Below are positions 6,730 to 21,298 of a DNA stretch of 21,597 nucleotides, one piece after another. Origin of the DNA: a virus; IMG/VR virus record IMGVR_UViG_3300025108_000441, positions 1-21,597 of that record; one strand, written 5' to 3'. A program made the position numbers and the translations under genes. The notes beneath the pieces are model-generated. The model ran no database searches. It saw only the letters and a list, made by a program, of their open reading frames with translations, and was not told the DNA's origin. Positions within the stretch are counted from its first letter, which is position 1, and each line of letters opens with the position of its first letter.

Positions 6730-6921
6730 ATGGGAGATATATTCGATAAAATCCTAGCCCCTTATATGGGGTCTATGCCTGAGTTTATTATTTCAATTTT
6801 AGGCTTGTTGGGGACTCTTTCGTATATTGTGCCTGAAAATAGTAAACTGGGTAGGTTGTTAAGTAAGTTAACAGGCAATCTAACTAAACTTAAAAACTTC
6901 ATCCTAAAAAAGAAGAAATGA
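6730..6921 (+). CDS. Small one-TM protein with a basic tail
   Basis: A 63-residue protein, MGDIFDKILAPYMGS at the start. It has one hydrophobic segment at about 16-35 (PEFIISILGLLGTLSYIV) and a lysine-rich C-terminus (NFILKKKK). Size and shape resemble small phage membrane proteins such as holins, antiholins or pinholins, but no family is recognised. It starts 4 bases after the stop of the acidic-protein gene and overlaps the next gene by ATGA, so all three are probably translated from one mRNA. A membrane partner for one of its operon neighbours is also possible. Confidence 0.65.
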   Translation: MGDIFDKILAPYMGSMPEFIISILGLLGTLSYIVPENSKLGRLLSKLTGNLTKLKNFILKKKK

Positions 6922-7751
6922 AGCGCACACTCATAACTCTACTCTCAATTATTTCCGTAGCTAAATCTGCTGTCATTACCTCTGTAGAAGGAAATGTATT
7001 TCTAATAAACCCTACAGAAAACCCTAATATCAACCCTGAAGTCAATATCCAAAGACCCATCCAGATCAGCAATGAGGAAGTTGTAGATATAGCCGAGAGT
7101 GAAGATAAGAAATTAGATATGGTTATCACTTGGGACGCAGATGAAGCCGAGATTTATGATTTTTATGATGCTCCAAATTGGGATTTTTCACAATCAGACT
7201 CTCAGGAATTAAATAGAGACTCCCCTATTACTAATATCTTAACCATAACAGATTCCTTGATACTTGAAGATAGCCCCTCTTATTCACATATCGAGATTGG
7301 AGATGGTTTTTCAGTAACATTAATATCTACGGATTTTGCTTTCCAAAACAATAATGGCTTCACAGGAGTGGAAGATGATGATGGTATTTATTCCGTGCTG
7401 AACATAACTGAAGGGTCAAGTATGGACGCTATGTTTTCTGCAATTGGATTAGAGATAAATGTAGATTCAACTAGCAGCTTAACACTACGAGGCGCTGGAG
7501 ACTCAATCAATAGTCAGATCGAAAGATCTATCGTCAATTTGTCGCCAAATGCCAAACTCACTCTAGATTCAATAGAGGAGTTTTCAGAACAAGGGGATGA
7601 CATTTATTTAAATGGAGTATCATTCAATCAAGATCCTTCTATTTTAAAATTTAATGGCAACACAGGCACTGCAATTCCAGAGTTTAATTCCATTTTATTT
7701 AATGCTATACCTATAATTCTACTCTTAAGACGCAGGGATAGATTTAATTAA
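6918..7751 (+). CDS. Secreted protein with a PEP-CTERM-like sorting tail
   Basis: A 277-residue protein. The N-terminus MKRTLITLLSIISVAKSAV is a Sec signal peptide with likely cleavage near AKSA. Residues about 70-105 have the WDxxxxxxxDxYDAPNWD pattern common at the start of Verrucomicrobial PEP-CTERM proteins, followed by beta-rich repeats (TITDSLILEDS, IEIGDGFSVTL). The C-terminus has the three parts of a PEP-CTERM signal: IPEF (253-256) in place of VPEP, a 14-residue hydrophobic segment (257-270) and an RRR cluster (271-273). In bacteria such tails direct proteins to exosortase for cell-surface sorting. The second Pro of the motif is Phe here, so processing is uncertain. It is the last gene of the plus-strand operon and ends tail to tail with the lipoprotein gene. 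It was probably acquired from a host; its role in infection is unknown. Confidence 0.75.
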   Translation: MKRTLITLLSIISVAKSAVITSVEGNVFLINPTENPNINPEVNIQRPIQISNEEVVDIAESEDKKLDMVITWDADEAEIYDFYDAPNWDFSQSDSQELNRDSPITNILTITDSLILEDSPSYSHIEIGDGFSVTLISTDFAFQNNNGFTGVEDDDGIYSVLNITEGSSMDAMFSAIGLEINVDSTSSLTLRGAGDSINSQIERSIVNLSPNAKLTLDSIEEFSEQGDDIYLNGVSFNQDPSILKFNGNTGTAIPEFNSILFNAIPIILLLRRRDRFN

Positions 7752-7996
7752 TTAAAAAGATCTCTCTCCAACTTCCTGTAACGAGCATCTGAATGCCAGA
7801 CTTCATCTGTCGGGGGAGTATAAACTCCCTCTTCAGTCTGAATCGGTTGACCCGCCTTCAGCTTCAACGAAGACGGCTGATATATGTTTAAACTGCTTGT
7901 TTTCGGTGAGGAGCTGCCCCCGCAAGAAGTCAGCACGATCATTAGATTCATTGTCGCCAATAGAGCGGAGCCTTTCAATTTCTTCGATAAGTTCAT
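7748..7996 (-). CDS. Outer-spanin-like lipoprotein (Rz1 type)
   Basis: An 82-residue protein with a basic start, hydrophobic stretch and lipobox VLTSC, so the mature protein would begin at Cys25 (CGGSSSPKTSS). The rest is short, polar and Pro-containing (SLKLKAGQPIQTEEGVY, then PPTDEVWHSDARYRKLERD). The gene starts inside the 89-residue gene at 7833-8102 in a different frame and extends past its end, the classical arrangement of Rz1 in Rz. Outer spanins are small outer-membrane lipoproteins that disrupt the outer membrane at lysis. The stop overlaps the stop of the plus-strand gene by 4 bases. The lipoprotein call is firm; the spanin role rests on architecture. Confidence 0.72.
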   Translation of the reverse strand: MNLSKKLKGSALLATMNLMIVLTSCGGSSSPKTSSLNIYQPSSLKLKAGQPIQTEEGVYTPPTDEVWHSDARYRKLERDLFN

Positions 7997-8102
7997 GTTT
8001 TCTTTTGTTATGTTTTCCCGTAATTTCAGAGAATGCGAGCTTATTTCTCAACTTGAGGTATAACTCTACGCTTTTCAATACGGATTTAATTAGAGATACC
8101 AT
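7833..8102 (-). CDS. Possible inner-spanin-like (Rz-type) protein
   Basis: An 89-residue protein. The first 25 residues (MVSLIKSVLKSVELYLKLRN) form an amphipathic, moderately hydrophobic helix rather than a clear membrane segment. Residues 30-70 are strongly helical and charged (HELIEEIERLRSIGDNESND, then ADFLRGQL), fitting a short coiled coil. The lipoprotein gene starts within it in another frame with a 164-base overlap. That nesting, the size and the position next to late genes suggest an Rz-like inner spanin. The weak membrane anchor is against this, and it could instead be a cytoplasmic partner or lysis regulator. It starts at ATG 8102, with 7 bases between its start and the end of the epimerase gene. 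Confidence 0.6.
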   Translation of the reverse strand: MVSLIKSVLKSVELYLKLRNKLAFSEITGKHNKRKHELIEEIERLRSIGDNESNDRADFLRGQLLTENKQFKHISAVFVEAEGGSTDSD

Positions 8103-9903: not shown

Positions 9904-10092
9904 TTACACATCTTTTTCAAAAACTTCATTATAAGTTTGAAGTTTTTCTTCTTCGCTCATTTTCTCCAACTGATCAGTAACCTCCCTCAATGAAAGAGAG
10001 GTTACTATATCGATCAATTCGGTGAAGGTAAGATTACTAGCTATCCGATTGACAAGAGCTTTCTCAAGCTCCTCTTCCTGCAACGGAGACAT
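9904..10092 (-). CDS. Small helical phage protein, unknown
   Basis: A 62-residue, acidic, all-helical protein (MSPLQEEELEKALVNRIASN, then LTFTELIDIVTSLS). No motif is recognised beyond a pattern common in small phage proteins (SEEEKLQTYNEVF). It starts in a TAATG overlap with the stop of the upstream DUF736-like gene, so it is probably co-translated with it. The stop lies 9 bases from the ATG of the next gene. Function unknown. Confidence 0.55.
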   Translation of the reverse strand: MSPLQEEELEKALVNRIASNLTFTELIDIVTSLSLREVTDQLEKMSEEEKLQTYNEVFEKDV

Positions 10093-10487
10093 TAATTTTG
10101 AAGGGCTTTGCTTTTATAGATTCGAAGATCAGGATGGTTATCCTTTTCTTTGAATTTATTTTGGAAAATGACGATTTCTGTTTTTTTGTCTTTTACTGAG
10201 AGACTCCCAGAATAAAAGGGTTTATCATCACCTTTCCGCCACAACGCTCCGATTTCCCGCTCTGACCAGTCATCACTGGTTTGAGTAGAATCTTGAGGCT
10301 TGCTTAGGTAGATACGGAGATCAGGATGATTGTCCTTCTCCTTGAACTTATTCTGAAAAATTACAATTTCAGTCGTAGAACCAGAAACGGTAAAGTTACC
10401 AGAATAAAATGGCTTTTCGCCACCTTTACGCCAGAGAGCGCCGACTTCTCGTTCGCTCCATTCGCTATTTTTTTTATTTTCTTCCAT
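10092..10487 (-). CDS. DUF736-like protein with two tandem copies of one domain
   Basis: A 131-residue protein made of two nearly identical 54-residue units (residues 10-63 and 74-127). Each begins WSERE(V/I)GALWRKG, continues KPFYSG and ends EIVIFQNKFKEKDNHPDLRIY. The pattern IGALWxK, FxSG, VxxFxNKxK, PDxRIY is that of DUF736, a small beta-sheet family usually found in single copy in phages, plasmids and proteobacteria. Its molecular role is not known. The gene overlaps the 53-residue gene upstream by 14 bases and the 62-residue gene downstream by TAATG. The internal duplication appears fairly recent because the second halves of the units are identical for more than 15 residues. Confidence 0.65.
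   Translation of the reverse strand: MEENKKNSEWSEREVGALWRKGGEKPFYSGNFTVSGSTTEIVIFQNKFKEKDNHPDLRIYLSKPQDSTQTSDDWSEREIGALWRKGDDKPFYSGSLSVKDKKTEIVIFQNKFKEKDNHPDLRIYKSKALQN
10107..10460 (-). repeat. Intragenic duplication of the DUF736-like domain
   Basis: Copy 1 is 10460-10299 and copy 2 is 10268-10107, separated by 30 bases. The encoded units are over 80% identical, while many codons differ at the third base, so the copies have been diverging under protein-level selection. Confidence 0.75.
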
Positions 10488-10876: not shown

Positions 10877-13180
10877 TCAAGCAGAAAGATTGATTTTATT
10901 CAGGTTTATTTCAGAGCAGTTTTCTGTGATTTTCTCACAAATGAACTTGTTAATATGCGTATCAAATCGCTCCTCGAAATCAACTAGATTTTTAGAGGAA
11001 CGAGCAAACTTCTTAAGAAAATCTAATGTGAATGTAACTTCAATATTGTTCAAACGAAGATCCTCATTGATCTTTTGGAGCTTGTTGTAGAGGATTCTGA
11101 AAATATCTTTCTTTTTAACCTGCTTCAATAATACATTACAGTCAACTAAAGATAATAATTCTTTAAAAATGGATGAGGTTGGAGACTCTTCGTCAGAATT
11201 AAACCCCATTGATGAAGTATTCTCTACTCCGCTAGTTACAAAAATTTTGACATTAGAAAAATCAGCTATGTCTCCATTGGACATTTGTAGCTTCCCGTCT
11301 TTAAGTATTTGAGCAAATAAGCTCTTAACAGAAAGGTGCAGTTTGTGGAAGTCGTCAATAATAATAACGCTATTAGGATGGATATTAATCTTCTCGCATA
11401 AAGAAGTATTGTTCATGATCTCTGGCAAGATTTTAAACTTAGCAAACTCATCTGAGAAATGAACCCCGCTATAATTTAAGACATTCACCCCGCTTTTTTC
11501 CAAAGAATCCTTTAAATTAGAGCAGAAGAAGCTTTTGCCTGTAGACTCTTGGCCAGTGATACAATAAATACTGGGAACTGAACTTTTTTTATGTATCCCG
11601 TAGCTTGAAAGAGATATTGATTCGACAAGAGAATCGATAATCTTATTATTGCCCACAAACTTTTCTTTTAAGCTTAGAGCCAAGTCTGATAAAATGTCCG
11701 GCTTCCGTAAAGGGTTTTCTTTCTTGGAGAAAAACTCCTTTAAGTGTTTCACTGTAACTTCTGGTAAATCTTCTTCTTTATCTCCCACCCAAGAAGATAA
11801 TTGATCTGTCACAAAAGAAAGAACAGACTCTGGACAATTAAGGTCAATATCTTTTTCTTTTATACTCTCTCTGATATCCTTTAGAGAAGAGTCTTGGCCC
11901 CAATAAGCAACTTTTGCTTGCGCTCCACAATGATCGATCACATCAATAGCCTTGTCTGGATAAAACTTATTCGGAAGATACTTCTCACAGAAGTTAATAA
12001 CGTTGTTTATGAAGTTATCCGTATAACTAACACAATGGAACTCTTCATAATATGAGGCGATAACGGGCAATATCTCCTGCATCTGGAACTTGGAAGGCTC
12101 CTTGATAATAACTCTTTCAAATCGACGATCTAAAGCAGTGTCTTTTTTAATTGTATTAGTATACTCATTAATTGTGGTCGCTCCAATACAGCTTATAGTT
12201 CCCCTCGCTAATTCTGGCTTTAGTATATTTGAAGCTTCCAAAGAGTTTTCTGTTGTCCCTCCTGCTCCCACCAAGGTGTGTATTTCGTCTATAAAGAGAA
12301 TGATATTTTCGTGCTTTTTAACCTCATCTACGAACTTCTCCAACCTCTCCTCAAATTGTCCCCTGTATTGAGTCCCAGCAACCATACTAGACAAACTCAA
12401 AGAGTAAATAACCTTGTTTGCAATAAGTTCTGGGGCTTCCCCATTAACAATCTTAGAAGCTAATCCCTCAATCAAAGAGGTTTTACCTGTCCCTGCTGGT
12501 CCTACTAAAATTGCATTTGGCTTTTTCTTCCTACAAAGGATAGTGGCTATCTCTGATATTTTATCATCAAAGTCTACAACCTTATCAAACTCGTCACGGG
12601 AGGCTTTTAGGTTTAGATTCTCCGCAAATTGATCTAGGATTTCATTTTCGTCAAACATCCCAATCCAATTATCCATAGAAAGCTCGAAATTATCGCCTTC
12701 AGAATTACCATCTTTAAAATTGAGTTCCATTTCTGACTCTTCCTCATCTCTTAAGAATACGGTAATATCATTAATTAATACATCGAGGTCATCTTCATCA
12801 AAAACTTCCACCAAAGCCTTTGGAGCATACTCGGGAGCGCACATGCACAAAAGCATTGACTCTGGACTGATGTAATCTAGCCCGAAAAATTCTTTTTGGA
12901 CGAACTCACACTGATCAATAAGCTTGGATAATTTGCTTGAATACTGTCTAGAGACCTCCTTATTAGGCTTTTTCTTTCTAAGGGTCTTTTCTGCCACTAT
13001 ATTAAGAGCTTGGATACTATCATGTCTCCCTAAAATAGTTTCACATGACAAACTAATGTCCTGCATAAAGCAAGAGAAGAAAATATCTAAATCAACTTTG
13101 TTTCTCCCAAGATATTCTGTTAAGTCTTGAGAGTTTTTTAATATAGATGTTAGTTGAGGAGTAAAAGGCAAATCGTTCAT
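10877..13180 (-). CDS. ClpA/ClpC-like double-AAA+ ATPase (unfoldase-like)
   Basis: A 767-residue protein. Residues 1-200 are a divergent, partly acidic N-domain. The first AAA+ module is intact: Walker A GPAGTGKT (227-234), pore-loop region AGTQYRGQFEERL (268-280), Walker B IILFIDEIHTLVGAG (293-307) and arginine-finger region DRRFER (351-356). The second module keeps Walker A GQESTGKS (543-550). Its Walker B ends in DD, not DE (605-610), it lacks the GYVG pore loop, and the expected arginine finger is not visible. MGF at 658-660 falls where ClpA/ClpC carry the ClpP-docking tripeptide (IGL/LGF type). Clp rings unfold proteins for ClpP or remodel complexes. It overlaps the polymerase gene by ATGA, suggesting it acts with the replisome, perhaps as a remodeller. 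No clamp loader is otherwise in view. Confidence 0.82.
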   Translation of the reverse strand: MNDLPFTPQLTSILKNSQDLTEYLGRNKVDLDIFFSCFMQDISLSCETILGRHDSIQALNIVAEKTLRKKKPNKEVSRQYSSKLSKLIDQCEFVQKEFFGLDYISPESMLLCMCAPEYAPKALVEVFDEDDLDVLINDITVFLRDEEESEMELNFKDGNSEGDNFELSMDNWIGMFDENEILDQFAENLNLKASRDEFDKVVDFDDKISEIATILCRKKKPNAILVGPAGTGKTSLIEGLASKIVNGEAPELIANKVIYSLSLSSMVAGTQYRGQFEERLEKFVDEVKKHENIILFIDEIHTLVGAGGTTENSLEASNILKPELARGTISCIGATTINEYTNTIKKDTALDRRFERVIIKEPSKFQMQEILPVIASYYEEFHCVSYTDNFINNVINFCEKYLPNKFYPDKAIDVIDHCGAQAKVAYWGQDSSLKDIRESIKEKDIDLNCPESVLSFVTDQLSSWVGDKEEDLPEVTVKHLKEFFSKKENPLRKPDILSDLALSLKEKFVGNNKIIDSLVESISLSSYGIHKKSSVPSIYCITGQESTGKSFFCSNLKDSLEKSGVNVLNYSGVHFSDEFAKFKILPEIMNNTSLCEKINIHPNSVIIIDDFHKLHLSVKSLFAQILKDGKLQMSNGDIADFSNVKIFVTSGVENTSSMGFNSDEESPTSSIFKELLSLVDCNVLLKQVKKKDIFRILYNKLQKINEDLRLNNIEVTFTLDFLKKFARSSKNLVDFEERFDTHINKFICEKITENCSEINLNKINLSA

Positions 13181-15738
13181 TTTTTCTTAAGATCCATTAG
13201 TTTCATCATAATTTTAGTATCTACAACCCTTGCTGAATCTATGAAATTACTACCACGGCCTTTGCTTGCATTCAAGATTAAAACACAGTTTTTTGAAACT
13301 TTGTACTGATCAAGGAAATCAGAAAGAGTCTCTGACCTTGAGTTATCCATCATTAGAAAGCTAGCTGAAGCAGTATTGTCTGAACCCTCAATAAGCATAT
13401 ACTTGTTCCCGTTTTGAGATATCCTTGTAAAGAAATCTTTAACTTGACAAACTGTTTTGAACTTAGAATTCTCTGAGATCTCATCCAAGTCTTTCAGGCA
13501 GACCATTGAACCAAACTCATCTTCGAAACAGTCCTTCAAATCAAAAGAGTAGCTATAGCCCAATAAACTATTTTCATACCACCAATTAGAGAACTTCCGA
13601 TATGGTTTATTCTTATCGAAAATCTCTTTGTAGCTCTTGAACTTCTTTTTGAATGTCTCAAACCTAGACTCTTTTATTATAGGACGACCATCATCAGCGA
13701 TAGCCTTAACTTCAATGACTTTAGATATTGCATGTAAAATATCGTCACCAAACCTGTCTTTAAAAAGAATAAAATTCCTCTTTTCCCTATCTGTCAAGAT
13801 ATTGAATGCTTGAGCCTCTAAAACCAAACGGCTCCTTTTATCTGTAGCCTCTCCCATAGCTCCAGCTTGGATTAGGGCAACTAAAACAGAAATATTAATA
13901 CCACAACTTTTCGCAGCGGAAAAAACATCATACTTGCTAGAAAACCCGTCAGACCCTTTGAAGTGAATAAGGCTCTCAATCGATTTTGCTGAGATACCTT
14001 TGATACTATTTAAGCCATATCTAATGTTGTCCCCTTCAATCGAAAAATTCATTTCTGATTTAAATAAGTTAGGAGGTAAAAGTTTAATGCCGAAATGATC
14101 TAATTCTTGGTGGACAGAAGCGACAACCGCCAAGGGGTCTGGATCAAACTCGGATGACTCAAGGACAGACAAAAAGAACTCTCTAGGATACTTATACTTC
14201 AGATAAACCGTCTTAGCTGCCAACTCCGCATAAGCAAAGCTATGAGACTTATTAAAAGAGTAATCCGCTGAAGCTTGGAGAGCGCCCCAATAAAAATCAC
14301 TGATCTGACTATCTAATCCTAAATTTTCTGCGGCTTGATAAATCCTATCTCTCCATTTAGGCATCTCATCAACTTTTTTCTTACCAACAATACGACGAAG
14401 AGTTTCTGCCTCTTCTAAAGTCAAACCGAAAACCTTATTGGCAATCTGCATCAACTGTTCTTGATACAAGATAACGTTTTTAGACCAAGATAAAATTTCA
14501 TCTAGATCTTTATGGAGTTCGCTTGATTGAGGCGCTTGCTTTTGTCGGATATATTCGTCTACAAATTGTAAAGCCCCCGGTCTAGCAAGAGCTACAACAT
14601 CAGAAAGTTCATTCAAATTGTCTGGCTTAACGTCTTGGCAAACTCTAAAGTTTGTGTTAGCAGAAATCTGGAACAACCCCTCTGGATGATTGTAATCTTG
14701 AAGCTTATCATATATGAAGTCATCATTAGGATCAATTTCATCTATATTGATGCCAATCTTGTCGCAAGTCCTGTGGGCGATGGTTAAAGTTCTAAGGCCA
14801 AGGATATCGAACTTAACCATAAGGTCAGCGACATCATGCATATTGTAACCTGTTATCAGATCTCCGTCTTTAGTTTTCTGTAGAGGAACAACATCCCCTA
14901 TTGATTGGGAGCAAATGGCTATGCCAGATGGATGGACTCCCGTATTTTTGATTAAATTTTCTATCTTCTTTGCATTGATAAAAGTCTTATTGTGCTTCTT
15001 CGCCCAATTATCGAACTTTTCATTCTCCTCTCTTGCATTTTCCAAAGAAGATACTTTACCGTGAAGTTTCGGGATCATGTCGCTAACCGCATTAGCTTGC
15101 TCCTCCTTAGCTTCATCAAAATACTTAGTCGCTTCTCTAATACAAAGCTTAGAACTGAAAGTATTGAAGGTTAAGATCTTTGCTGTCCTACCCTCATGTT
15201 TTTCTTCAATGTATTGAATGACTTTCTGTCTTTGCTCATAACTAATGTCTGAGTCAACATCAGGAAGTAGGCTACCAACAAGAAATTCTTTATTTCGCTT
15301 GTCGTAAACTTTTTTAGCTCGGCTCTTTGAGACAAAGCGTTCGAAGAATAAGTTGTGAGGGATGGGGTCAATATTAGTAACTCCAAGCAAGTATAACACT
15401 AAAGAACCAGCAGCAGAACCACGACCCGCACCAGTGGGGATACTGTTTTCATGGCAGAAATTTAGAACGTCCCAGTTTAACAAAATATAATCTGTAAACC
15501 CAAGCTCTTCGAAAGTCTCTAGCTCCTGTTTAGCCCGATCAAAATATTCTTTTTTATTATCTTGCTTTGTAATTCCTTTATCCCGTAATCCTTTGCGGGT
15601 AAGCTCATACATAATTTCTTTAGTGGAACTTTCTTTGCCAAGACCAATACTACTCAATACAGCTTCGCTGACAGAAGTCTTAGGCAATTCAACGCCAATA
15701 GGTTCACAGTCGTCGTAAACAGAAAAATCTTCAAACAT
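13177..15738 (-). CDS. dnaE: DNA polymerase III alpha core, DnaE type, lacking the PHP domain
   Basis: An 853-residue protein from ATG 15738 (a GTG lies one codon earlier). It opens where the PHP-palm linker lies in DnaE: GFTDYILLNWD (80-90), then GAGRGSAAGSL (103-113). The palm Asp pair is in PDVDSD (D160, D162) and the third Asp is in VKFDILGLRTLT (D311). Finger and thumb phrases follow: LEEAETLRRIVGKKK (441-455) and YSFNKSHSFAYAELA (493-507). A helix-hairpin-helix (KGISAKSIESL) and a C-terminal OB fold (about 750-830) complete it. Domain order is that of DnaE, not PolC. It is normally about 1100-1200 residues; here the first 250-280 are encoded by a separate gene. All catalytic aspartates are present, so it should be active. 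It starts in a TGATG overlap with the exonuclease gene. Confidence 0.92.
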   Translation of the reverse strand: MFEDFSVYDDCEPIGVELPKTSVSEAVLSSIGLGKESSTKEIMYELTRKGLRDKGITKQDNKKEYFDRAKQELETFEELGFTDYILLNWDVLNFCHENSIPTGAGRGSAAGSLVLYLLGVTNIDPIPHNLFFERFVSKSRAKKVYDKRNKEFLVGSLLPDVDSDISYEQRQKVIQYIEEKHEGRTAKILTFNTFSSKLCIREATKYFDEAKEEQANAVSDMIPKLHGKVSSLENAREENEKFDNWAKKHNKTFINAKKIENLIKNTGVHPSGIAICSQSIGDVVPLQKTKDGDLITGYNMHDVADLMVKFDILGLRTLTIAHRTCDKIGINIDEIDPNDDFIYDKLQDYNHPEGLFQISANTNFRVCQDVKPDNLNELSDVVALARPGALQFVDEYIRQKQAPQSSELHKDLDEILSWSKNVILYQEQLMQIANKVFGLTLEEAETLRRIVGKKKVDEMPKWRDRIYQAAENLGLDSQISDFYWGALQASADYSFNKSHSFAYAELAAKTVYLKYKYPREFFLSVLESSEFDPDPLAVVASVHQELDHFGIKLLPPNLFKSEMNFSIEGDNIRYGLNSIKGISAKSIESLIHFKGSDGFSSKYDVFSAAKSCGINISVLVALIQAGAMGEATDKRSRLVLEAQAFNILTDREKRNFILFKDRFGDDILHAISKVIEVKAIADDGRPIIKESRFETFKKKFKSYKEIFDKNKPYRKFSNWWYENSLLGYSYSFDLKDCFEDEFGSMVCLKDLDEISENSKFKTVCQVKDFFTRISQNGNKYMLIEGSDNTASASFLMMDNSRSETLSDFLDQYKVSKNCVLILNASKGRGSNFIDSARVVDTKIMMKLMDLKKK

Positions 15739-16352
15739 CACAAATTCATTTCTTTTTTAAGCGCACAAAAAACTTTAAAGCACTTTTTGTTATCATATAA
15801 GGCATCATGAAGCTTCTCTTCTTCAAATTCTATACCAAAGAATTTAAGTAACTGATTTTGAGAAACTCTCGCCTTGAGAGATCGATCATGGATTATCTTA
15901 TACTGCCAACTCAATAAATCTTTCTTCGGCTTATCGAGATCTTCCCTGTAAGCCTTACCGAAAGCTCTAGTATCGTAAATTCGATTAAGATAAGAGTAAT
16001 CAGGGGTTTCTCCCAATAACCTTTGCATCCCAGCTACCATATAGACATCGAAACCCAAAAGATTTTGACCAACAATTTTATATTCTGGGTTAAATAAATC
16101 AGCCTTAAAATCAGACCAAACCTTCTTCAAAGGCTCTTTCCTCTCGTTATATTTATCCCAACTAAAACCAGTCAAATGCTCTACCTTTTTATTGATTTGC
16201 AAATCTTTGTGGCTAATATATCTATCGTTCTCTTTGATGACTCTATTCCCTTGACAGATTAACCACGAAACCTGCCAAGTGCGAGAAGAATGTAAATTAA
16301 GTCCTTCAGTTTCCGTATCGAAAACTAGATATTTTTGATTATGTGGTAGCAT
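15738..16352 (-). CDS. DEDDh 3'-5' exonuclease (DnaQ-like proofreader)
   Basis: A 204-residue exonuclease. Exo I is FDTETEGL (D12, E14), Exo II is VGQNLLGFDVYM (N97, D102) and Exo III is HDALYDN (H182, D187), so all DEDDh residues are in place. The size is close to the catalytic part of DnaQ (epsilon), without its alpha-binding tail. It lies exactly between the PHP-like gene (14-base overlap) and the polymerase core (1-base overlap, TGATG). This order copies the PHP-exo-polymerase order of PolC, but as three separate proteins. It would supply proofreading in trans to the polymerase. Confidence 0.88.
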   Translation of the reverse strand: MLPHNQKYLVFDTETEGLNLHSSRTWQVSWLICQGNRVIKENDRYISHKDLQINKKVEHLTGFSWDKYNERKEPLKKVWSDFKADLFNPEYKIVGQNLLGFDVYMVAGMQRLLGETPDYSYLNRIYDTRAFGKAYREDLDKPKKDLLSWQYKIIHDRSLKARVSQNQLLKFFGIEFEEEKLHDALYDNKKCFKVFCALKKEMNL

Positions 16353-17040
16353 CTTTATAAGACTCCCAACAGAACTCGTCTGAACAGAAGTGATTTAGGT
16401 TTGGGTTTTGGAAAGTTGGAGATTTACCTCCAGATCTATTACAAGTAGCTTTGTACAGTTGTAAAGCTGCAAATTCATCTTTATTATGATGAAGAATTGT
16501 CTTGACTGTCTCTGTCTTTACTCCAAGCCCGTCAATGACAGACTTAATTTGAAAGTCAAAAGGGTGATTATTATCTTCAATAAAATAAACTGGGTCTAAA
16601 TGCTCAATGTCTATATGAGATAACCCGAAGTAAAATAAATTATTAAAAATATAAGAGTCGTAGAAGGGTACGCAAACTTTAAGGTTTTTGAAATCCTCTT
16701 CATTATGTTCAGACAAAATAAGGGATTTACAATCATTCAAAGAGGCGCTTGAATACAGTCTTTTTAGATCTTGTATTCCCTCATTATCTTTAGCGAAAAG
16801 AACTAATTTGCTCGACCTTTCATTTTCATCGATTCCGCTATTGACAACAGAAATCCTAAGACCGAATACTAAATTAATACCTTCTTCTTGAAAAAGATTA
16901 TTGAATACTCTAAAGCCATAAAAGCTATCTTCAACCAAGGCGACATGCTCCAAAGAGTTCAGCTTTGCGATGTCCAATATTTTCTCTGCGGTCAGAATAG
17001 AATTACCTATACTAAACTGGCTCTTGAAGAGAGGTATCAT
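16339..17040 (-). CDS. Separate PHP-like domain of DNA polymerase III alpha
   Basis: A 233-residue protein whose first 65 residues follow the DnaE N-terminal PHP pattern: MIPLFKSQFSIGNSILTAEK, then AKLNSLEHVALVEDSFYGF and EEGINLVFGLRISVV. The later part follows the PHP C-terminal half (LQLYKATCNRSGGKSP, then HFCSDEFCWESY). The metal-binding HxH at the start is replaced by FKSQFS, and the GxE after strand three is GLR, so it is probably not a nuclease. A structural role, docking the exonuclease or stabilising the polymerase, is likely. It overlaps the exonuclease gene by 14 bases and starts 9 bases after the nuclease gene at 17050. No Shine-Dalgarno is seen. Confidence 0.75.
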   Translation of the reverse strand: MIPLFKSQFSIGNSILTAEKILDIAKLNSLEHVALVEDSFYGFRVFNNLFQEEGINLVFGLRISVVNSGIDENERSSKLVLFAKDNEGIQDLKRLYSSASLNDCKSLILSEHNEEDFKNLKVCVPFYDSYIFNNLFYFGLSHIDIEHLDPVYFIEDNNHPFDFQIKSVIDGLGVKTETVKTILHHNKDEFAALQLYKATCNRSGGKSPTFQNPNLNHFCSDEFCWESYKDATT

Positions 17041-17049
17041 GCAGGGATC

Positions 17050-18108
17050 TTAAAGGAGATCTCTCGGACTGTCAAACGAAAAAGACGGGCAACCAGAATA
17101 TTTTTTCTTTTCAATATGCGTCCCTACTCCTTCGTCAAGCATGTTTTGTAAATCTTCTTTAACGTAAGAGGACTTGATGAACTTATCCTTCTCTCCAAGC
17201 AAATGGTAGTACTCAAATGGGAACTTGAATGGACAGTGCCACATCAAATCTCCATTCTTTTTCAATTGTCCTACCCGAGTAGCTCTACCGCAAACAATTT
17301 TACCAGCGAAACCTTCTTCCTTCGCTGGATATCCTTTATCCCAAGCAAGGCCACTGACCGCAGTATCGTGATTGAAATTATTAATTACCTGTTGGACATC
17401 CGTTAAAAAATATTCAAAACCTTCTAGGTCTAATTCATCTAACGGCTCCATAGCCATAAGACCCTCCCCATTTAAGTCAAACTTTAAGAACAAGAACTCC
17501 ATACGCCTCTTGAGGTATTCTGGATACAAGTATTTAACAGCAAGGCAATACATGTAATCCTGCATGTTGTCTGTATACTCTTTACCTTCGAAAACACTTT
17601 TCGAGGTTTTAAAGTCTCGGATTATCGCTGTTTTTTTTCTTTTAAAAAGGAATAGCTTATCTATAAATCCTAATATCCGATAATTCTTGTCCCCTTCGTT
17701 TACGGAGATATCAAAATCTTTCTCAGAAATAGCTTCTGTCGGTTTCCCGTCTGTATCTCCAAAAAAATCAAAATTAAGACCCTCAACTGTCATCTTGTTG
17801 ATTAGGTCCATATTCTCAAAGTCGTCTATCTCATACTTCTTGGCATAAGCTTCCACCATTCTTTTAATAGGAGGGCTAACGTTTATATCTTGAGCTTTAA
17901 TAATAGCTCTATAATGCTTCCTATGCCTAGGGTTACCTAAGTTCTCAAAAACAGCATGGCAGATTGTCCCACGCAAAGATCCGTGATTAGATTTATCTGG
18001 TAAGCGTAAATGATACTTGGCCCAATATTGCCAAGTACAAGTTTGCATTGTTTTAATGCGCGAGGCTGAGAGCGGCTTGTTTTCAGATTTCTCCATAATG
18101 GAAGTCAT
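17050..18108 (-). CDS. RecB/Cas4-like PD-(D/E)XK nuclease
   Basis: A 352-residue protein from ATG 18108; a TTG four codons upstream and an ATG at 18096 are alternatives. It opens with SASRIKTMQTCTWQYWAKY, then GSLRGTICHAVFENL (43-57). The catalytic core is GFIDKLFLF (D150) and AIIRDFKTSK (D165, K167), followed by QDYMYCLAVKYLYP (motif QxxxY). This is the RecB/Cas4-type exonuclease fold common in phage replication modules. Cysteines at 24, 273, 292 and 340 could hold an Fe-S cluster, but the spacing is not the usual one. It overlaps the end of the primase gene by 26 bases and probably processes DNA ends during recombination-dependent replication. Confidence 0.75.
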   Translation of the reverse strand: MTSIMEKSENKPLSASRIKTMQTCTWQYWAKYHLRLPDKSNHGSLRGTICHAVFENLGNPRHRKHYRAIIKAQDINVSPPIKRMVEAYAKKYEIDDFENMDLINKMTVEGLNFDFFGDTDGKPTEAISEKDFDISVNEGDKNYRILGFIDKLFLFKRKKTAIIRDFKTSKSVFEGKEYTDNMQDYMYCLAVKYLYPEYLKRRMEFLFLKFDLNGEGLMAMEPLDELDLEGFEYFLTDVQQVINNFNHDTAVSGLAWDKGYPAKEEGFAGKIVCGRATRVGQLKKNGDLMWHCPFKFPFEYYHLLGEKDKFIKSSYVKEDLQNMLDEGVGTHIEKKKYSGCPSFSFDSPRDLL

Positions 18109-19132
18109 ATTTTTTTTCAAACTTCCGCAAATTAGAAGTGAATGTTTTGTTCACGCCACGTTTATTCATCTCTTTGGCGAAATCAATAATGTTAGCCATT
18201 GATTCATTATGCTTGATCGACGCACAATATTCAACATATTTATCTATTTGATCTTTATCCATGTCTCCGAAGTCATTTTCTGGGGGCGGAGAAAAAAATA
18301 CTTTATCAAAATCAATTTGATCACAGAGCTTAAATATAGACTTAATAGAACCTTCAAATCCCCTATTAGAACCTGAGTTAAAATCATTATTAAATGCAAT
18401 AAAAATTTTATCTAACGGTAATCCATGGAGCTTAGATATGAACTTAGGAGAAATATTAAGCCCGAAGGAAACTAGAACATTTTTGATCCCAGCCTCAAAC
18501 AATGAAATACAATCTCCAACTGATTCTACAATATAAACACTCCGACTCTCTTCAATAGCAAGACGAACATCATCTATCGTGTAATATGGATAGAACCAAT
18601 CAGAACATCTCCCATTGTGCAACCATTTAGGTCTAGGGTCATCCGTTACCTTTCGACCCGAGAACCCATGTATCCTCCCGTCAGGGCGGGAGATAGGGAA
18701 TATAACTCGCTGATACATTTTACCAGACATCGCCAATCCGCACTTAAACTTTTTTAAAGTATCTTCTGATATTCCTCTGTTTAAATAAAAGTCATAATGA
18801 GGTAGCAAACGACTTAAACAAGAATCTGGATATGTTTTTTCTTCACTCAAAAGATTTTTTTTAGCAGAGCGCTCATATATATTTACACCATTACTCTTTA
18901 AATAAGAACTTAAAACACTCTTGTCGTTAGTATTCAAAGTTTTCTTAAGTAAAGCTTCGAAGGGTAAAAATATAGAATCTTCTACATAGTCTTTCCAAAC
19001 TCCCGTATCTTTGTAGATCTGTAGTGCTGTAGAATTATCACCAGACCTATATACGGCGCTAGTTCTCCAATAAGAACCATGATCTTTTAGGCGATAGCCA
19101 AGATCTTCTAAAACAGATTTGTAATCAGTCAT
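18083..19132 (-). CDS. DnaG-type primase without zinc ligands
   Basis: A 349-residue protein. The first 60 residues align by pattern with the primase zinc-ribbon (YWRTSAVYRSGDN, then DTGVWKDYVEDSIFLPFEAL), but every cysteine/histidine ligand position is non-ligand. The RNA-polymerase domain is seen at GRIHGFSGRKV (152-162). TOPRIM motifs are VYIVESVGDCISLFEAG (E204, D207) and IAFNNDFNSGSNRG (248-250, NND in place of the usual DxD). It follows DnaB with an ATGA overlap. It would make primers for the phage fork, as part of a primosome with the DnaB-like helicase. The helicase-binding domain is short or absent, as in many phage primases. Confidence 0.82.
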   Translation of the reverse strand: MTDYKSVLEDLGYRLKDHGSYWRTSAVYRSGDNSTALQIYKDTGVWKDYVEDSIFLPFEALLKKTLNTNDKSVLSSYLKSNGVNIYERSAKKNLLSEEKTYPDSCLSRLLPHYDFYLNRGISEDTLKKFKCGLAMSGKMYQRVIFPISRPDGRIHGFSGRKVTDDPRPKWLHNGRCSDWFYPYYTIDDVRLAIEESRSVYIVESVGDCISLFEAGIKNVLVSFGLNISPKFISKLHGLPLDKIFIAFNNDFNSGSNRGFEGSIKSIFKLCDQIDFDKVFFSPPPENDFGDMDKDQIDKYVEYCASIKHNESMANIIDFAKEMNKRGVNKTFTSNLRKFEKKYDFHYGEI

Positions 19133-20676
19133 TGTGAAAGAGTAACTGGGATATCATCACTTTCGCTACTAGACTCCAAATTAACATCAACGTTGTTAAC
19201 AGAATTAACAATATCCTGAAGATCTCCTCTCTCTTCGATTCTAAAGTTTTGAATATTTAAATTTATGAAGTTCTTGCGATTAGAGCCATCTGGCATTTCT
19301 ATGTGATTAATGTCCCGGAGAGGGTTCTTACCTAGGTGACGAGCTTTAAGGTTCACTAGTTTATGAGTTCCGAATCTATCTCCATCTTCATGGATTTCAT
19401 CTGCGACCTTCCTCCTCAACAAAAACAAATGAGAACAAAACTGAGTAATACCATCAGAAAGAGAAACTACACTTTCATCATCAACTATTGAATCTGCTCC
19501 CCTGTTGCCTGTAATCCCAAGCCTATTTGCTTGAACAGAAGTCATCATTGAAACACAAGGCTTCCCATCAAAACACAAGTCTCTATGAATCGTTTGTTTA
19601 AACAAGTGAACCATCGAAGCAACTTGTTGCCAACCATCATTTTTGCCAAGGTTATTGAAATCTGTTTTGATGTAGTCAAAGCTAAAAATCATTCTGTTGC
19701 CCCTACCAACTTTAGAGTAGTAATACCTTTTCAAATAAGAGCACATTTCTTCAGCAGACATGCCAGCAACATTCACATAATAGAACTGCATATTGCCAGC
19801 CTTTATTTTTTTCCAAGTATTCCGCACCCTAGCTACAACCTCTTCGACAGACCAATTCTTATAACTAGAAGTCCTCCACTTTCCACTTTGTAGAAGGTAA
19901 ACGGGTATACCGCTCATTGCAGAACACTGACGAAAAGTAAGCTCCTCTTCACTCATCTCGCCATTATCAAAGTGCAAGACGGGGATGTTGTATTTAGCTC
20001 CAGTCCTTGTGGTATAATCCATACAGAACTGAGTCTTTCCTACGCCAGAACGAGCAACAATAACAGAGATATTCCCCTCTAAAAGTAGAGACCCGTAAAT
20101 CTCGTTTATTCTTTCATGTGGACCCATCAATCCAGATTCCTCAACAGGATTATTCCCCCTGTCTTCAACCAAACTTTCCATCATATCAAAAAGATTAATT
20201 GGCCCATCATCAGTGAACTCAAAGTCTTTGATATTTTTATTGTAAATCTCGTCAGCTTTATCTATAATTTCTGAATATTTTTCATCAGGATCGACCTTTT
20301 TGACATAAGAAGCTACGTCCCTTGCGGAGCGATAGATCTCTCTACGAGCAGAGAACTTTTTCAACTCCTTTACTGAAGAAATGAATATATCTTCAGTAAT
20401 CTTATGGTAAACAAGGGAGCGGATGTATTCTGGTAGGTCAATACTGTCTGGGAAACTCACCTTTAGTTGCTCCAATCTTGGAATAAGAATAGTGTCATCA
20501 ATTGACTCCATATTATTCAATGCATTGCGAATCAATTTGAAAATAGAAAGGTGAACCTGAGAGTCATCGCTAAAGAAATCTTTCTCATTGAGGAATACTG
20601 AAACTTCAGCCCACTTGTGAGGGTGCTGGAGAAGACCCTTCAATACAGTCTTCTCCAGATCCATGCTTGATATCAT
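19129..20676 (-). CDS. dnaB: Replicative DNA helicase, DnaB type
   Basis: A 515-residue protein. The N-terminal domain (about 8-150) is helical and DnaB-like (EKTVLKGLLQHPHKW). The RecA-type motor has Walker A ARSGVGKT (208-215), the Glu region FDNGEMSEEE (236-245), Walker B MIFSFDYIK (329-337) and the SVQANR motif (380-385). It unwinds DNA at the fork and pairs with the adjacent primase. The start at ATG 20676 is chosen because a strong Shine-Dalgarno AAGGAGGT lies 6 bases before it; the in-frame Met at residue 5 is not needed. The gene overlaps both neighbours by ATGA. Size is slightly above the usual 450-470 residues, with a Ser/Asp-rich tail. Confidence 0.92.
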   Translation of the reverse strand: MISSMDLEKTVLKGLLQHPHKWAEVSVFLNEKDFFSDDSQVHLSIFKLIRNALNNMESIDDTILIPRLEQLKVSFPDSIDLPEYIRSLVYHKITEDIFISSVKELKKFSARREIYRSARDVASYVKKVDPDEKYSEIIDKADEIYNKNIKDFEFTDDGPINLFDMMESLVEDRGNNPVEESGLMGPHERINEIYGSLLLEGNISVIVARSGVGKTQFCMDYTTRTGAKYNIPVLHFDNGEMSEEELTFRQCSAMSGIPVYLLQSGKWRTSSYKNWSVEEVVARVRNTWKKIKAGNMQFYYVNVAGMSAEEMCSYLKRYYYSKVGRGNRMIFSFDYIKTDFNNLGKNDGWQQVASMVHLFKQTIHRDLCFDGKPCVSMMTSVQANRLGITGNRGADSIVDDESVVSLSDGITQFCSHLFLLRRKVADEIHEDGDRFGTHKLVNLKARHLGKNPLRDINHIEMPDGSNRKNFINLNIQNFRIEERGDLQDIVNSVNNVDVNLESSSESDDIPVTLSQ

Positions 20677-20894
20677 CGAGCACCTCCTTCGTCCAAAGAA
20701 ATTTCCAATAACTTACTCAAAGCCATATCAACACAAGTATTTTCTGTCTTAGTCGCGAAAGTTGGTTGGCCCACATCATTAATGTAATATAAGAAAAATC
20801 CTTTATTCCCACCGCTTTCAGAACCCGTGCAATCAAAAAGCTTAGTTAGAATGCTTGGAGGCAATGTGTTGTCCGTTTTGTCAAAATTATTCAT
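20673..20894 (-). CDS. Small protein of unknown function
   Basis: A 73-residue protein starting MNNFDKTDNTLPPSILTKLF. The middle (GGNKGFFLYYINDVGQPTFA) suggests a small beta-strand pair and the end is helical (CVDMALSKLLEISLDEGGAR). It has two cysteines and no metal motif. It overlaps both the nuclease gene upstream and DnaB downstream by ATGA, so it is in the core of the replication operon. The position suggests a helicase-associated accessory role, but no family is recognised. Confidence 0.5.
   Translation of the reverse strand: MNNFDKTDNTLPPSILTKLFDCTGSESGGNKGFFLYYINDVGQPTFATKTENTCVDMALSKLLEISLDEGGAR
20682..20689 (-). promoter_or_regulatory. Strong Shine-Dalgarno of the DnaB-like gene
   Basis: AAGGAGGT on the minus strand, ending 5-6 bases before ATG 20676. 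It decides the start codon and stands out because most other starts in the window lack such a site. It also encodes the last residues (DEGGAR) of the preceding gene. Confidence 0.75.
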
Positions 20895-21298
20895 ATAATA
20901 TCTAGTCTTCTCAGAAGCTCCTCGTCAATAGTATCCTTTTCCAATATTCTGACAAGCTTAATTTTATTGATTTCACAAAAATACTCCTTTTTCTCATCTC
21001 TCTGTAATTGAGAAAGGAAATTTTGCCTAGAGTTTGAGTGGAAGAACTTGTTGTATTTGTAATGTTGATTACCATCCACCTCTACTGCAAGTTTTTTATT
21101 TGCGTTGTAAAAGTCTAATGTCATTCGTGTCCCAAGAACGGGAAGCTCCTCAAAAACAATATCAGAAACCCAATTTGAGTATAAGAGATCTTTAACTTTT
21201 TTTTGAAGCTTACTTCGACACTTTTTATCCCAATCAATTAAATACTTTGTAGAATTCTTGAGCTTTTGTTCTCGACCAGTTGTCGTTAAAAAGATCAT
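20891..21298 (-). CDS. Vsr/DUF559-like PD-(D/E)XK endonuclease
   Basis: A 135-residue protein. The core is TRMTLDFYNANKKLAVEVDG (about 77-96), giving the D-x(n)-ExDG pattern of Vsr and DUF559 nucleases, followed by NQHY. Downstream QRDEKKEYFCEINKIKLVRI supplies the conserved RDxxKxxFC helix and the strand LVRI. An upstream EELPV (about 70) fits the first acidic position. Size is right for a single-domain nuclease. It could nick or cut DNA during recombination or resolve junctions; a homing-type nuclease is an alternative. It is linked by ATGA overlaps to the recombinase gene upstream and the 73-residue gene downstream. Confidence 0.68.
   Translation of the reverse strand: MIFLTTTGREQKLKNSTKYLIDWDKKCRSKLQKKVKDLLYSNWVSDIVFEELPVLGTRMTLDFYNANKKLAVEVDGNQHYKYNKFFHSNSRQNFLSQLQRDEKKEYFCEINKIKLVRILEKDTIDEELLRRLDII

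What the first reader, a model, noticed from the sequence alone, without database searches (positions are those of the whole stretch)
13177..17040. DNA polymerase III alpha split into three genes, with the proofreader placed between PHP and polymerase
Three overlapping genes in order encode a PHP-like protein (16339-17040), a DEDDh exonuclease with all catalytic residues (15738-16352) and a DnaE polymerase core that starts exactly at the PHP-palm linker (13177-15738). PolC has the exonuclease inserted in its PHP domain, while DnaE carries PHP and polymerase in one chain. This locus has the PolC-like gene order but a DnaE-type polymerase (OB fold at the C-terminus). The overlaps of 14 bases and 1 base suggest coupled, balanced synthesis of a trans-assembled polymerase. 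It could be a fission product or an intermediate between the two architectures.
Basis: partly seen in the sequence, partly recalled or inferred. Interest (0 to 1): 0.78.

Follow-up and report, generated by a model that had tools for sequence, protein, structure and literature searches.

The report
Phage DNA polymerase in three genes
A large, uncultivated group of aquatic phages makes its copying enzyme (a bacterial-type DNA polymerase III) as three separate proteins - a catalytically dead PHP domain, a proofreading nuclease and the polymerase core - so the PHP domain's poorly understood role could be tested by adding or removing one protein.

Summary
The three genes lie at the stated coordinates with 14-nt and 1-nt overlaps, and the PHP, exo, pol order is kept in 173 of 182 distinct polymerase loci. 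PHP and pol are never fused there; seven of the nine exceptions are cut by a contig end. The PHP-like protein is a DnaE-type PHP domain by fold (E about 1e-10) and ends where DnaE's PHP ends. The exonuclease keeps all DEDDh residues in 171/171 copies and pol its catalytic aspartates in 175/175. All nine PHP metal ligands are gone in 166/167 copies, mostly replaced by conserved Lys/Arg, while dN/dS is about 0.07. PHP divergence tracks pol (partial r 0.60) rather than neighbouring genes. Best reading: ancient fission of a DnaE polymerase, with PHP kept as a structural subunit assembling in trans. The PolC/DnaE 'intermediate' idea fails: the core is DnaE in profile, fold and tree, and exo follows a complete PHP. 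Cultured actinophages show independent PHP/pol fissions with an intact PHP site and no adjacent exo gene, so this is a new variant, not a new category. Complex formation is inferred, not shown.

The parts
16339..17040 (-). stand-alone PHP domain of a DnaE-type alpha subunit (233 aa), metal site lost (LKNDRKFTL in place of HHDHEHCDH)
   Evidence: Pfam PHP 2.1e-8; AF2 pLDDT 88.9; Foldseek best hits are Pol III alpha PHP domains, TMq 0.75-0.79; ligand count
15738..16352 (-). DEDDh 3'-5' exonuclease (204 aa), catalytic residues D12 E14 D102 H182 D187, no C-terminal tail
   Evidence: RNase_T 2.8e-9; PHROG DNA polymerase exonuclease subunit 5e-16; residues invariant in 171/171
13177..15738 (-). DnaE-type polymerase core (853 aa): linker, palm/thumb/fingers, HhH, OB; catalytic D160, D162, D311
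   Evidence: Pfam; TIGR00594 466 bits over cut-off; AF2 pLDDT 85; Foldseek DnaE1 4.6e-39; 175/175 catalytic residues
16339..16352 (-). 14-nt overlap of the PHP and exo genes
   Evidence: same -14 overlap in about 40 distinct relatives
15736..15740 (-). TGATG stop-start overlap of the exo and pol genes (ATGA in other relatives)
   Evidence: sequence; relatives
10877..13180 (-). ClpA-like AAA+ ATPase gene overlapping the pol end by 4 nt (context; role not assigned)
   Evidence: TIGR02639 2.4e-110
17050..18120 (-). PD-(D/E)XK nuclease upstream of PHP (replication cluster context)
   Evidence: Pfam PDDEXK_1 1.3e-14
18083..19132 (-). DnaG-like primase (context)
   Evidence: PHROG DNA primase 1.1e-23
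19129..20676 (-). DnaB-like replicative helicase (context)
   Evidence: PHROG DnaB-like 4.6e-30

Best explanation
This is the replicative polymerase of a lineage of large aquatic phages. An ancestral single-chain DnaE (PHP plus core) was broken at the flexible PHP-palm linker and a DEDDh exonuclease gene came to lie between the halves (SHOWN: genes, homology, order, DnaE affinity). The PHP half then lost its whole metal site, so proofreading rests on the exonuclease (SHOWN in sequence; the activity is inferred). The free PHP is kept under purifying selection and co-diverges with pol (SHOWN). INFERRED: the PHP protein docks on the palm/thumb as the covalent domain does in other DnaE enzymes, holding the core and the tail-less exonuclease together as a trans-assembled Pol III core (pseudo-PHP, exo, pol), with the former metal pocket, now lined with conserved Lys/Arg, possibly used to grip exo or DNA.
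For: PHP fold equals the Pol III alpha PHP domain. Break point at the PHP-palm linker. DnaE-type core and a monophyletic split clade nested in DnaE, SH-aLRT 100. Order kept in 173/182, never fused. Each of 12 large records has one PF07733 gene and one split PHP, so no second fused DnaE is seen. Exo 171/171 and pol 175/175 catalytic residues kept; PHP 0 of 9 ligands in 166/167. PHP dN/dS 0.07-0.08. Partial correlation of PHP distances with pol 0.60, exo 0.25, PDDEXK 0.01, primase 0.08, helicase -0.34, 43 loci, although exo, not pol, is the adjacent gene. Known biology: the PHP of E. coli alpha binds the proofreader and is itself inactive (PMC3919608, PMC12926913).
Against: No complex was modelled or measured; the structure tool takes single chains only. 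The exo has no epsilon-like C-terminal tail, so it cannot dock on PHP in the known E. coli way. Distance-matrix partial correlations are not independent tests. No beta clamp was found in 12 large, possibly incomplete records and no conserved canonical clamp motif was seen in pol, so the rest of the replisome is unknown. All relatives were found with split-type queries, which favours split forms.
Confidence: 0.77

Rival explanations
1. The PHP protein has been freed from the polymerase and does another job (for example binds a host factor or nucleic acid through its new basic pocket); only exo and pol work together.
For: It is the fastest-diverging of the three (about 45% identity where pol and exo are about 70%), its metal site is replaced by conserved Lys/Arg, and it can be separated from exo by other genes.
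Against: It retains the complete DnaE PHP fold including the C-terminal segment next to the palm, is always encoded with pol and exo in the same order, and its divergence tracks pol specifically.
Confidence: 0.13
2. The locus is an evolutionary intermediate between PolC and DnaE (exo moving into PHP).
For: Gene order PHP-exo-pol superficially matches the PolC domain order; the exo scores slightly better with PolC models than with epsilon models (34 against 23 bits).
Against: Core is DnaE by profile, fold and tree; PHP matches DnaE better than PolC; OB is C-terminal; exo lies after a complete PHP, not inside it; the PHP site is a derived, dead one. The origin of the exo was not resolved.
Confidence: 0.03
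3. The three ORFs are joined after all, by programmed frameshifting or protein splicing, into one chain.
For: Short overlaps (14 and 1 nt); some relatives carry split-intein-like sequences inside pol.
Against: Foreign genes between PHP and exo in many relatives; no intein domain matched in PHP, exo or the window's pol; overlap lengths differ between clades.
Confidence: 0.02
4. The split is simply the PHP/pol fission already present in actinophages (shared ancestry), with nothing special about exo.
For: Gordonia phage LittleFella gp69/gp70 and Rhodococcus phage ChewyVIII gp72/gp70 split at the same linker.
Against: Those cores group with fused Troll4 (support 99) and not with the split clade; 33 representative split cores are one clade with support 100; the actinophage PHPs keep all nine ligands and no exo gene was seen beside them.
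Confidence: 0.05

Closest known systems
Bacterial DnaE1 (Pol III alpha, E. coli 2HNH/5FKV) with separate epsilon
   Same: Same core, same PHP fold, C-terminal OB, separate DEDDh proofreader, inactive PHP as in E. coli
   Different: PHP is a separate gene product; exo lacks the epsilon tail; region beyond OB (CTD) absent; exo gene sits between PHP and pol
PolC
   Same: PHP, exo, polymerase appear in that order along the DNA
   Different: One chain with exo inserted inside PHP and OB at the N-terminus; sequence, fold and tree exclude the phage core from PolC
Actinophage split DnaE (LittleFella gp69+gp70; ChewyVIII gp72+gp70)
   Same: PHP and polymerase core are separate adjacent genes broken at the same linker
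   Different: PHP active site intact (HHDHEHCDH), no exo gene beside it, independent fission in the tree
Bacteroidetes DnaE1 with exo fused before PHP
   Same: DnaE core with its own DEDDh exonuclease
   Different: Single chain, order exo-PHP-pol (PMC3919608); here PHP-exo-pol in three chains
Cyanobacterial split-intein DnaE; Cellulophaga phage phiST gp44/gp45
   Same: C-family polymerase encoded in pieces
   Different: Broken inside the polymerase core; the cyanobacterial break is mended by trans-splicing; here the break is between domains and no intein is present

Membership tests
DnaE-type Pol III alpha (TIGR00594) | core profile over the curated cut-off | tested here: met
   466.1 bits against cut-off 434.35
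DnaE-type Pol III alpha (TIGR00594) | three catalytic aspartates of palm | tested here: met
   D160, D162, D311 in 175/175
DnaE-type Pol III alpha (TIGR00594) | OB fold C-terminal to HhH | tested here: met
   HhH followed by a C-terminal beta region in AF2; OB-type partial matches in Foldseek
DnaE-type Pol III alpha (TIGR00594) | N-terminal PHP domain in the same chain | tested here: not met
   PHP in a separate ORF here and in 173 loci
PolC | PolC profile over cut-off | tested here: not met
   TIGR01405 37.8 bits, cut-off 1043
PolC | exonuclease inserted within PHP | tested here: not met
   PHP complete to FSSDEF-type end before the exo gene
Active PHP proofreader (HHDHEH[C/H]DH) | nine metal ligands | tested here: not met
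   0 of 9 in 166/167
DnaE PHP domain (fold) | structural match to Pol III alpha PHP | tested here: met
   Foldseek E 1.5e-10, TMq 0.75
DnaQ/epsilon proofreader | DEDDh catalytic residues | tested here: met
   171/171
DnaQ/epsilon proofreader | C-terminal alpha-binding tail | tested here: not met
   protein ends after the catalytic domain, 204 aa (alignment)
Split-intein DnaE | N- and C-intein halves at the break | tested here: not met
   no intein domain in PHP, exo or pol of the window; present in pol of a few relatives at other sites
Trans-assembled polymerase complex | physical PHP-pol-exo contact | not testable with these tools
   only indirect: co-occurrence and co-divergence

The most novel reading that the evidence does not exclude
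A C-family replicase that is an obligate three-chain enzyme, in which the PHP domain has become a metal-free structural subunit whose former active site was remodelled into a conserved basic pocket (Lys/Arg at four former ligand positions, Phe at a fifth) that clamps the exonuclease or product DNA, conserved across a very large uncultivated phage lineage.
Probability: 0.35. Interest if true: 0.75.

Novelty: new variant of a known kind. Interest (0 to 1): 0.6.

Why it matters
The PHP domain is kept in C-family polymerases even where it has no activity, and its structural role is hard to test because it is covalently attached. Here nature supplies it as a separate, dead but conserved subunit, so omission, add-back and mutation are direct experiments. 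It also shows that the PHP-palm linker is a repeated fission point in phages and that a PolC-like order can arise as a gene order without PolC ancestry.

Tried and rejected
Sequencing frameshift or misassembly: rejected. PolC membership or intermediate: rejected. Unrelated family for the PHP-like protein: rejected by fold, although the PHP profile alone found no significant PDB hit. Clamp and clamp loader: PF02768 and gp45 (PF02916) gave no hit over cut-off; hits to the PHROG clamp-loader model are RuvB-like by sequence, so not counted. Canonical clamp-binding motif: none conserved. No close cultured relative found with pol, PHP, exo, helicase or the ClpA-like protein. Literature: no paper found in the held library describes a separate PHP subunit; marine jumbo-phage cluster PGC_A is noted for PF07733 (PMC9123017) and jumbo subgroup 3.2 for a fused PHP-Pol III (PMC7824862).

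Full report
WHAT IS THERE. The window is a whole 21.6-kb IMG/VR record, part of a phage genome with tail-type genes on one side and a replication cluster on the other: DnaB-like helicase, DnaG-like primase, PD-(D/E)XK nuclease, PHP, exonuclease, polymerase, ClpA-like ATPase. The three genes of the finding are at the stated places. PHP (233 aa) and exo overlap by 14 nt, exo and pol by one (TGATG), and pol and the ClpA-like gene by four.

IDENTITY. The polymerase matches palm, fingers and HhH models and passes the DnaE cut-off (466 bits) while scoring 38 with PolC. Its AlphaFold model (pLDDT 85) is closest to M. tuberculosis, Thermus and E. coli DnaE1 (E 4.6e-39 to 1e-27) and much less like PolC (6e-16). 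The exonuclease is a DEDDh enzyme. The PHP-like protein passes the Pfam PHP cut-off; its model (pLDDT 88.9) matches the PHP domain of Pol III alpha with E about 1e-10 and TM 0.75-0.79, ahead of PolC (3e-8) and of free PHP phosphoesterases (about 1e-4). Aligned with fused DnaE proteins, it runs from the HxH region to the FSSDEFYLKS-type end of the PHP domain, and pol resumes within the linker before the palm.

CONSERVATION. Scans of viral contigs and one genome scan (where the hits look like phage contigs binned with bacterial genomes) gave 182 distinct polymerases; 173 have PHP, exo and pol in that order, none out of order and none with PHP in the pol ORF. Seven of the nine others are cut by a contig end within 620 bases; two (L261, L282) are short contigs with exo but no PHP in the held stretch. 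PHP and exo overlap in 41 cases, are within 100 nt in 82 and further apart in 50 (gaps measured to the profile start, so approximate in distant members), some with whole genes between them such as LAGLIDADG-like, GMP-reductase-like or SET-like genes. This rules out a frameshifted or sequencing-broken single gene. Twelve large records each hold one PF07733 gene and one such PHP.

A DEAD BUT KEPT PHP. In the cellular DnaEs used as references (other than E. coli) and in two of the three fused phage DnaEs compared, the nine-ligand motif reads HHDHEHCDH, the motif that PMC12926913 uses for an active PHP; E. coli reads RHDFDHGDR. In 166 of 167 split PHPs none of the nine is kept (the window reads LKNDRKFTL). 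The replacements are themselves conserved: K/R at the second His (161/167), at the LDG Asp (155), at the Glu (165), at the AHL His (166), and Phe at the Cys (167/167). PHP is nevertheless under purifying selection (dN/dS 0.07-0.08), exo keeps DEDDh in 171/171 and pol its aspartates in 175/175. The pattern, one live proofreader and one dead PHP, is the E. coli-like solution (PMC12926913).

CO-DIVERGENCE. In 43 dereplicated loci, PHP distances correlate with pol distances after the other replication genes are partialled out (0.60; resampling 0.60 +/- 0.05), weakly with exo (0.25; resampling 0.21 +/- 0.12), and not with the PD-(D/E)XK nuclease (0.01), primase (0.08) or helicase (-0.34). The exo gene, not the pol gene, is adjacent to PHP, so neighbourhood does not explain this. 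It is indirect evidence for contact.

ORIGIN. In a tree of 63 cores rooted on PolC, 33 representative split cores form one clade (SH-aLRT 100) inside DnaE near other phage DnaEs (weakly supported joins, some long branches), and PolC lies far off. Fused phage DnaEs surround it, so fission is the economical reading. The PHP/pol break has happened elsewhere: Gordonia phage LittleFella gp69+gp70 and Rhodococcus phage ChewyVIII gp72+gp70 have separate PHP and pol genes, but with a full HHDHEHCDH site, no exo beside them, and a fused sister (Troll4, support 99). So a PHP can be freed either alive and without a neighbouring exo gene, or dead with one next to it.

HOW IT PROBABLY WORKS. Pol core, exo and pseudo-PHP assemble in trans; PHP braces the palm and thumb and carries or positions the exonuclease, which has no epsilon-type tail. 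Shown: genes, fold, conservation, loss of metal site, co-divergence. Inferred: the complex and its geometry, and any use of the basic pocket. Not known: the clamp (no beta clamp or gp45 over cut-off found) and the host.

VERDICT. New variant of a known kind.

Noticed in passing
L091:5962-9039; L155:5977-8961; L067:7365-10257 and L068: In these relatives pol itself is interrupted by what look like naturally split inteins: N-half starting with Cys after GAGRG (L091) or YSFNK (L155, L067), and a separate downstream ORF starting with a C-intein ending in HN or SN before SAAGS or SHS. Pfam Intein_splicing gives weak to moderate matches, below its cut-off. The polymerase would then be assembled from four chains with trans-splicing; not tested further.
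   Followed up: partly
window 20891-21298 (-): 135-aa DUF559-like nuclease gene beside the helicase, possibly a free-standing homing-type endonuclease.
   Followed up: partly
window 7748-7996 and 7833-8102 (-): Overlapping ORFs, one with a lipoprotein-like signal (LTSCGG), resembling a nested Rz/Rz1 spanin pair; no Pfam match.
   Followed up: partly
window 6918-7751 (+): Protein ending IPEFNSILFNAIPIILLLRRRDRFN, which resembles a PEP-CTERM sorting tail; a possible clue to the host group.
   Followed up: no
window 10092-10487 (-): 131-aa protein made of two near-identical repeats (WSERE.GALWRKG..KPFYSG...TEIVIFQNKFKEKDNHPDLRIY).
   Followed up: no
L096, L101, L112, L124, L158, L159 between PHP and exo: Genes resembling IMP dehydrogenase/GMP reductase inserted between PHP and exo in several relatives; SET-domain-like and cupin/JmjC-like genes occupy the same gap in others (named by eye from the sequence).
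   Followed up: no
G009-G014, loci L188-L193: PolC proteins of about 1,217-1,238 aa whose profile match skips roughly positions 177-375 (the exonuclease), i.e. PolC that seems to lack its exo domain, in the bacterial class sampled.
   Followed up: no
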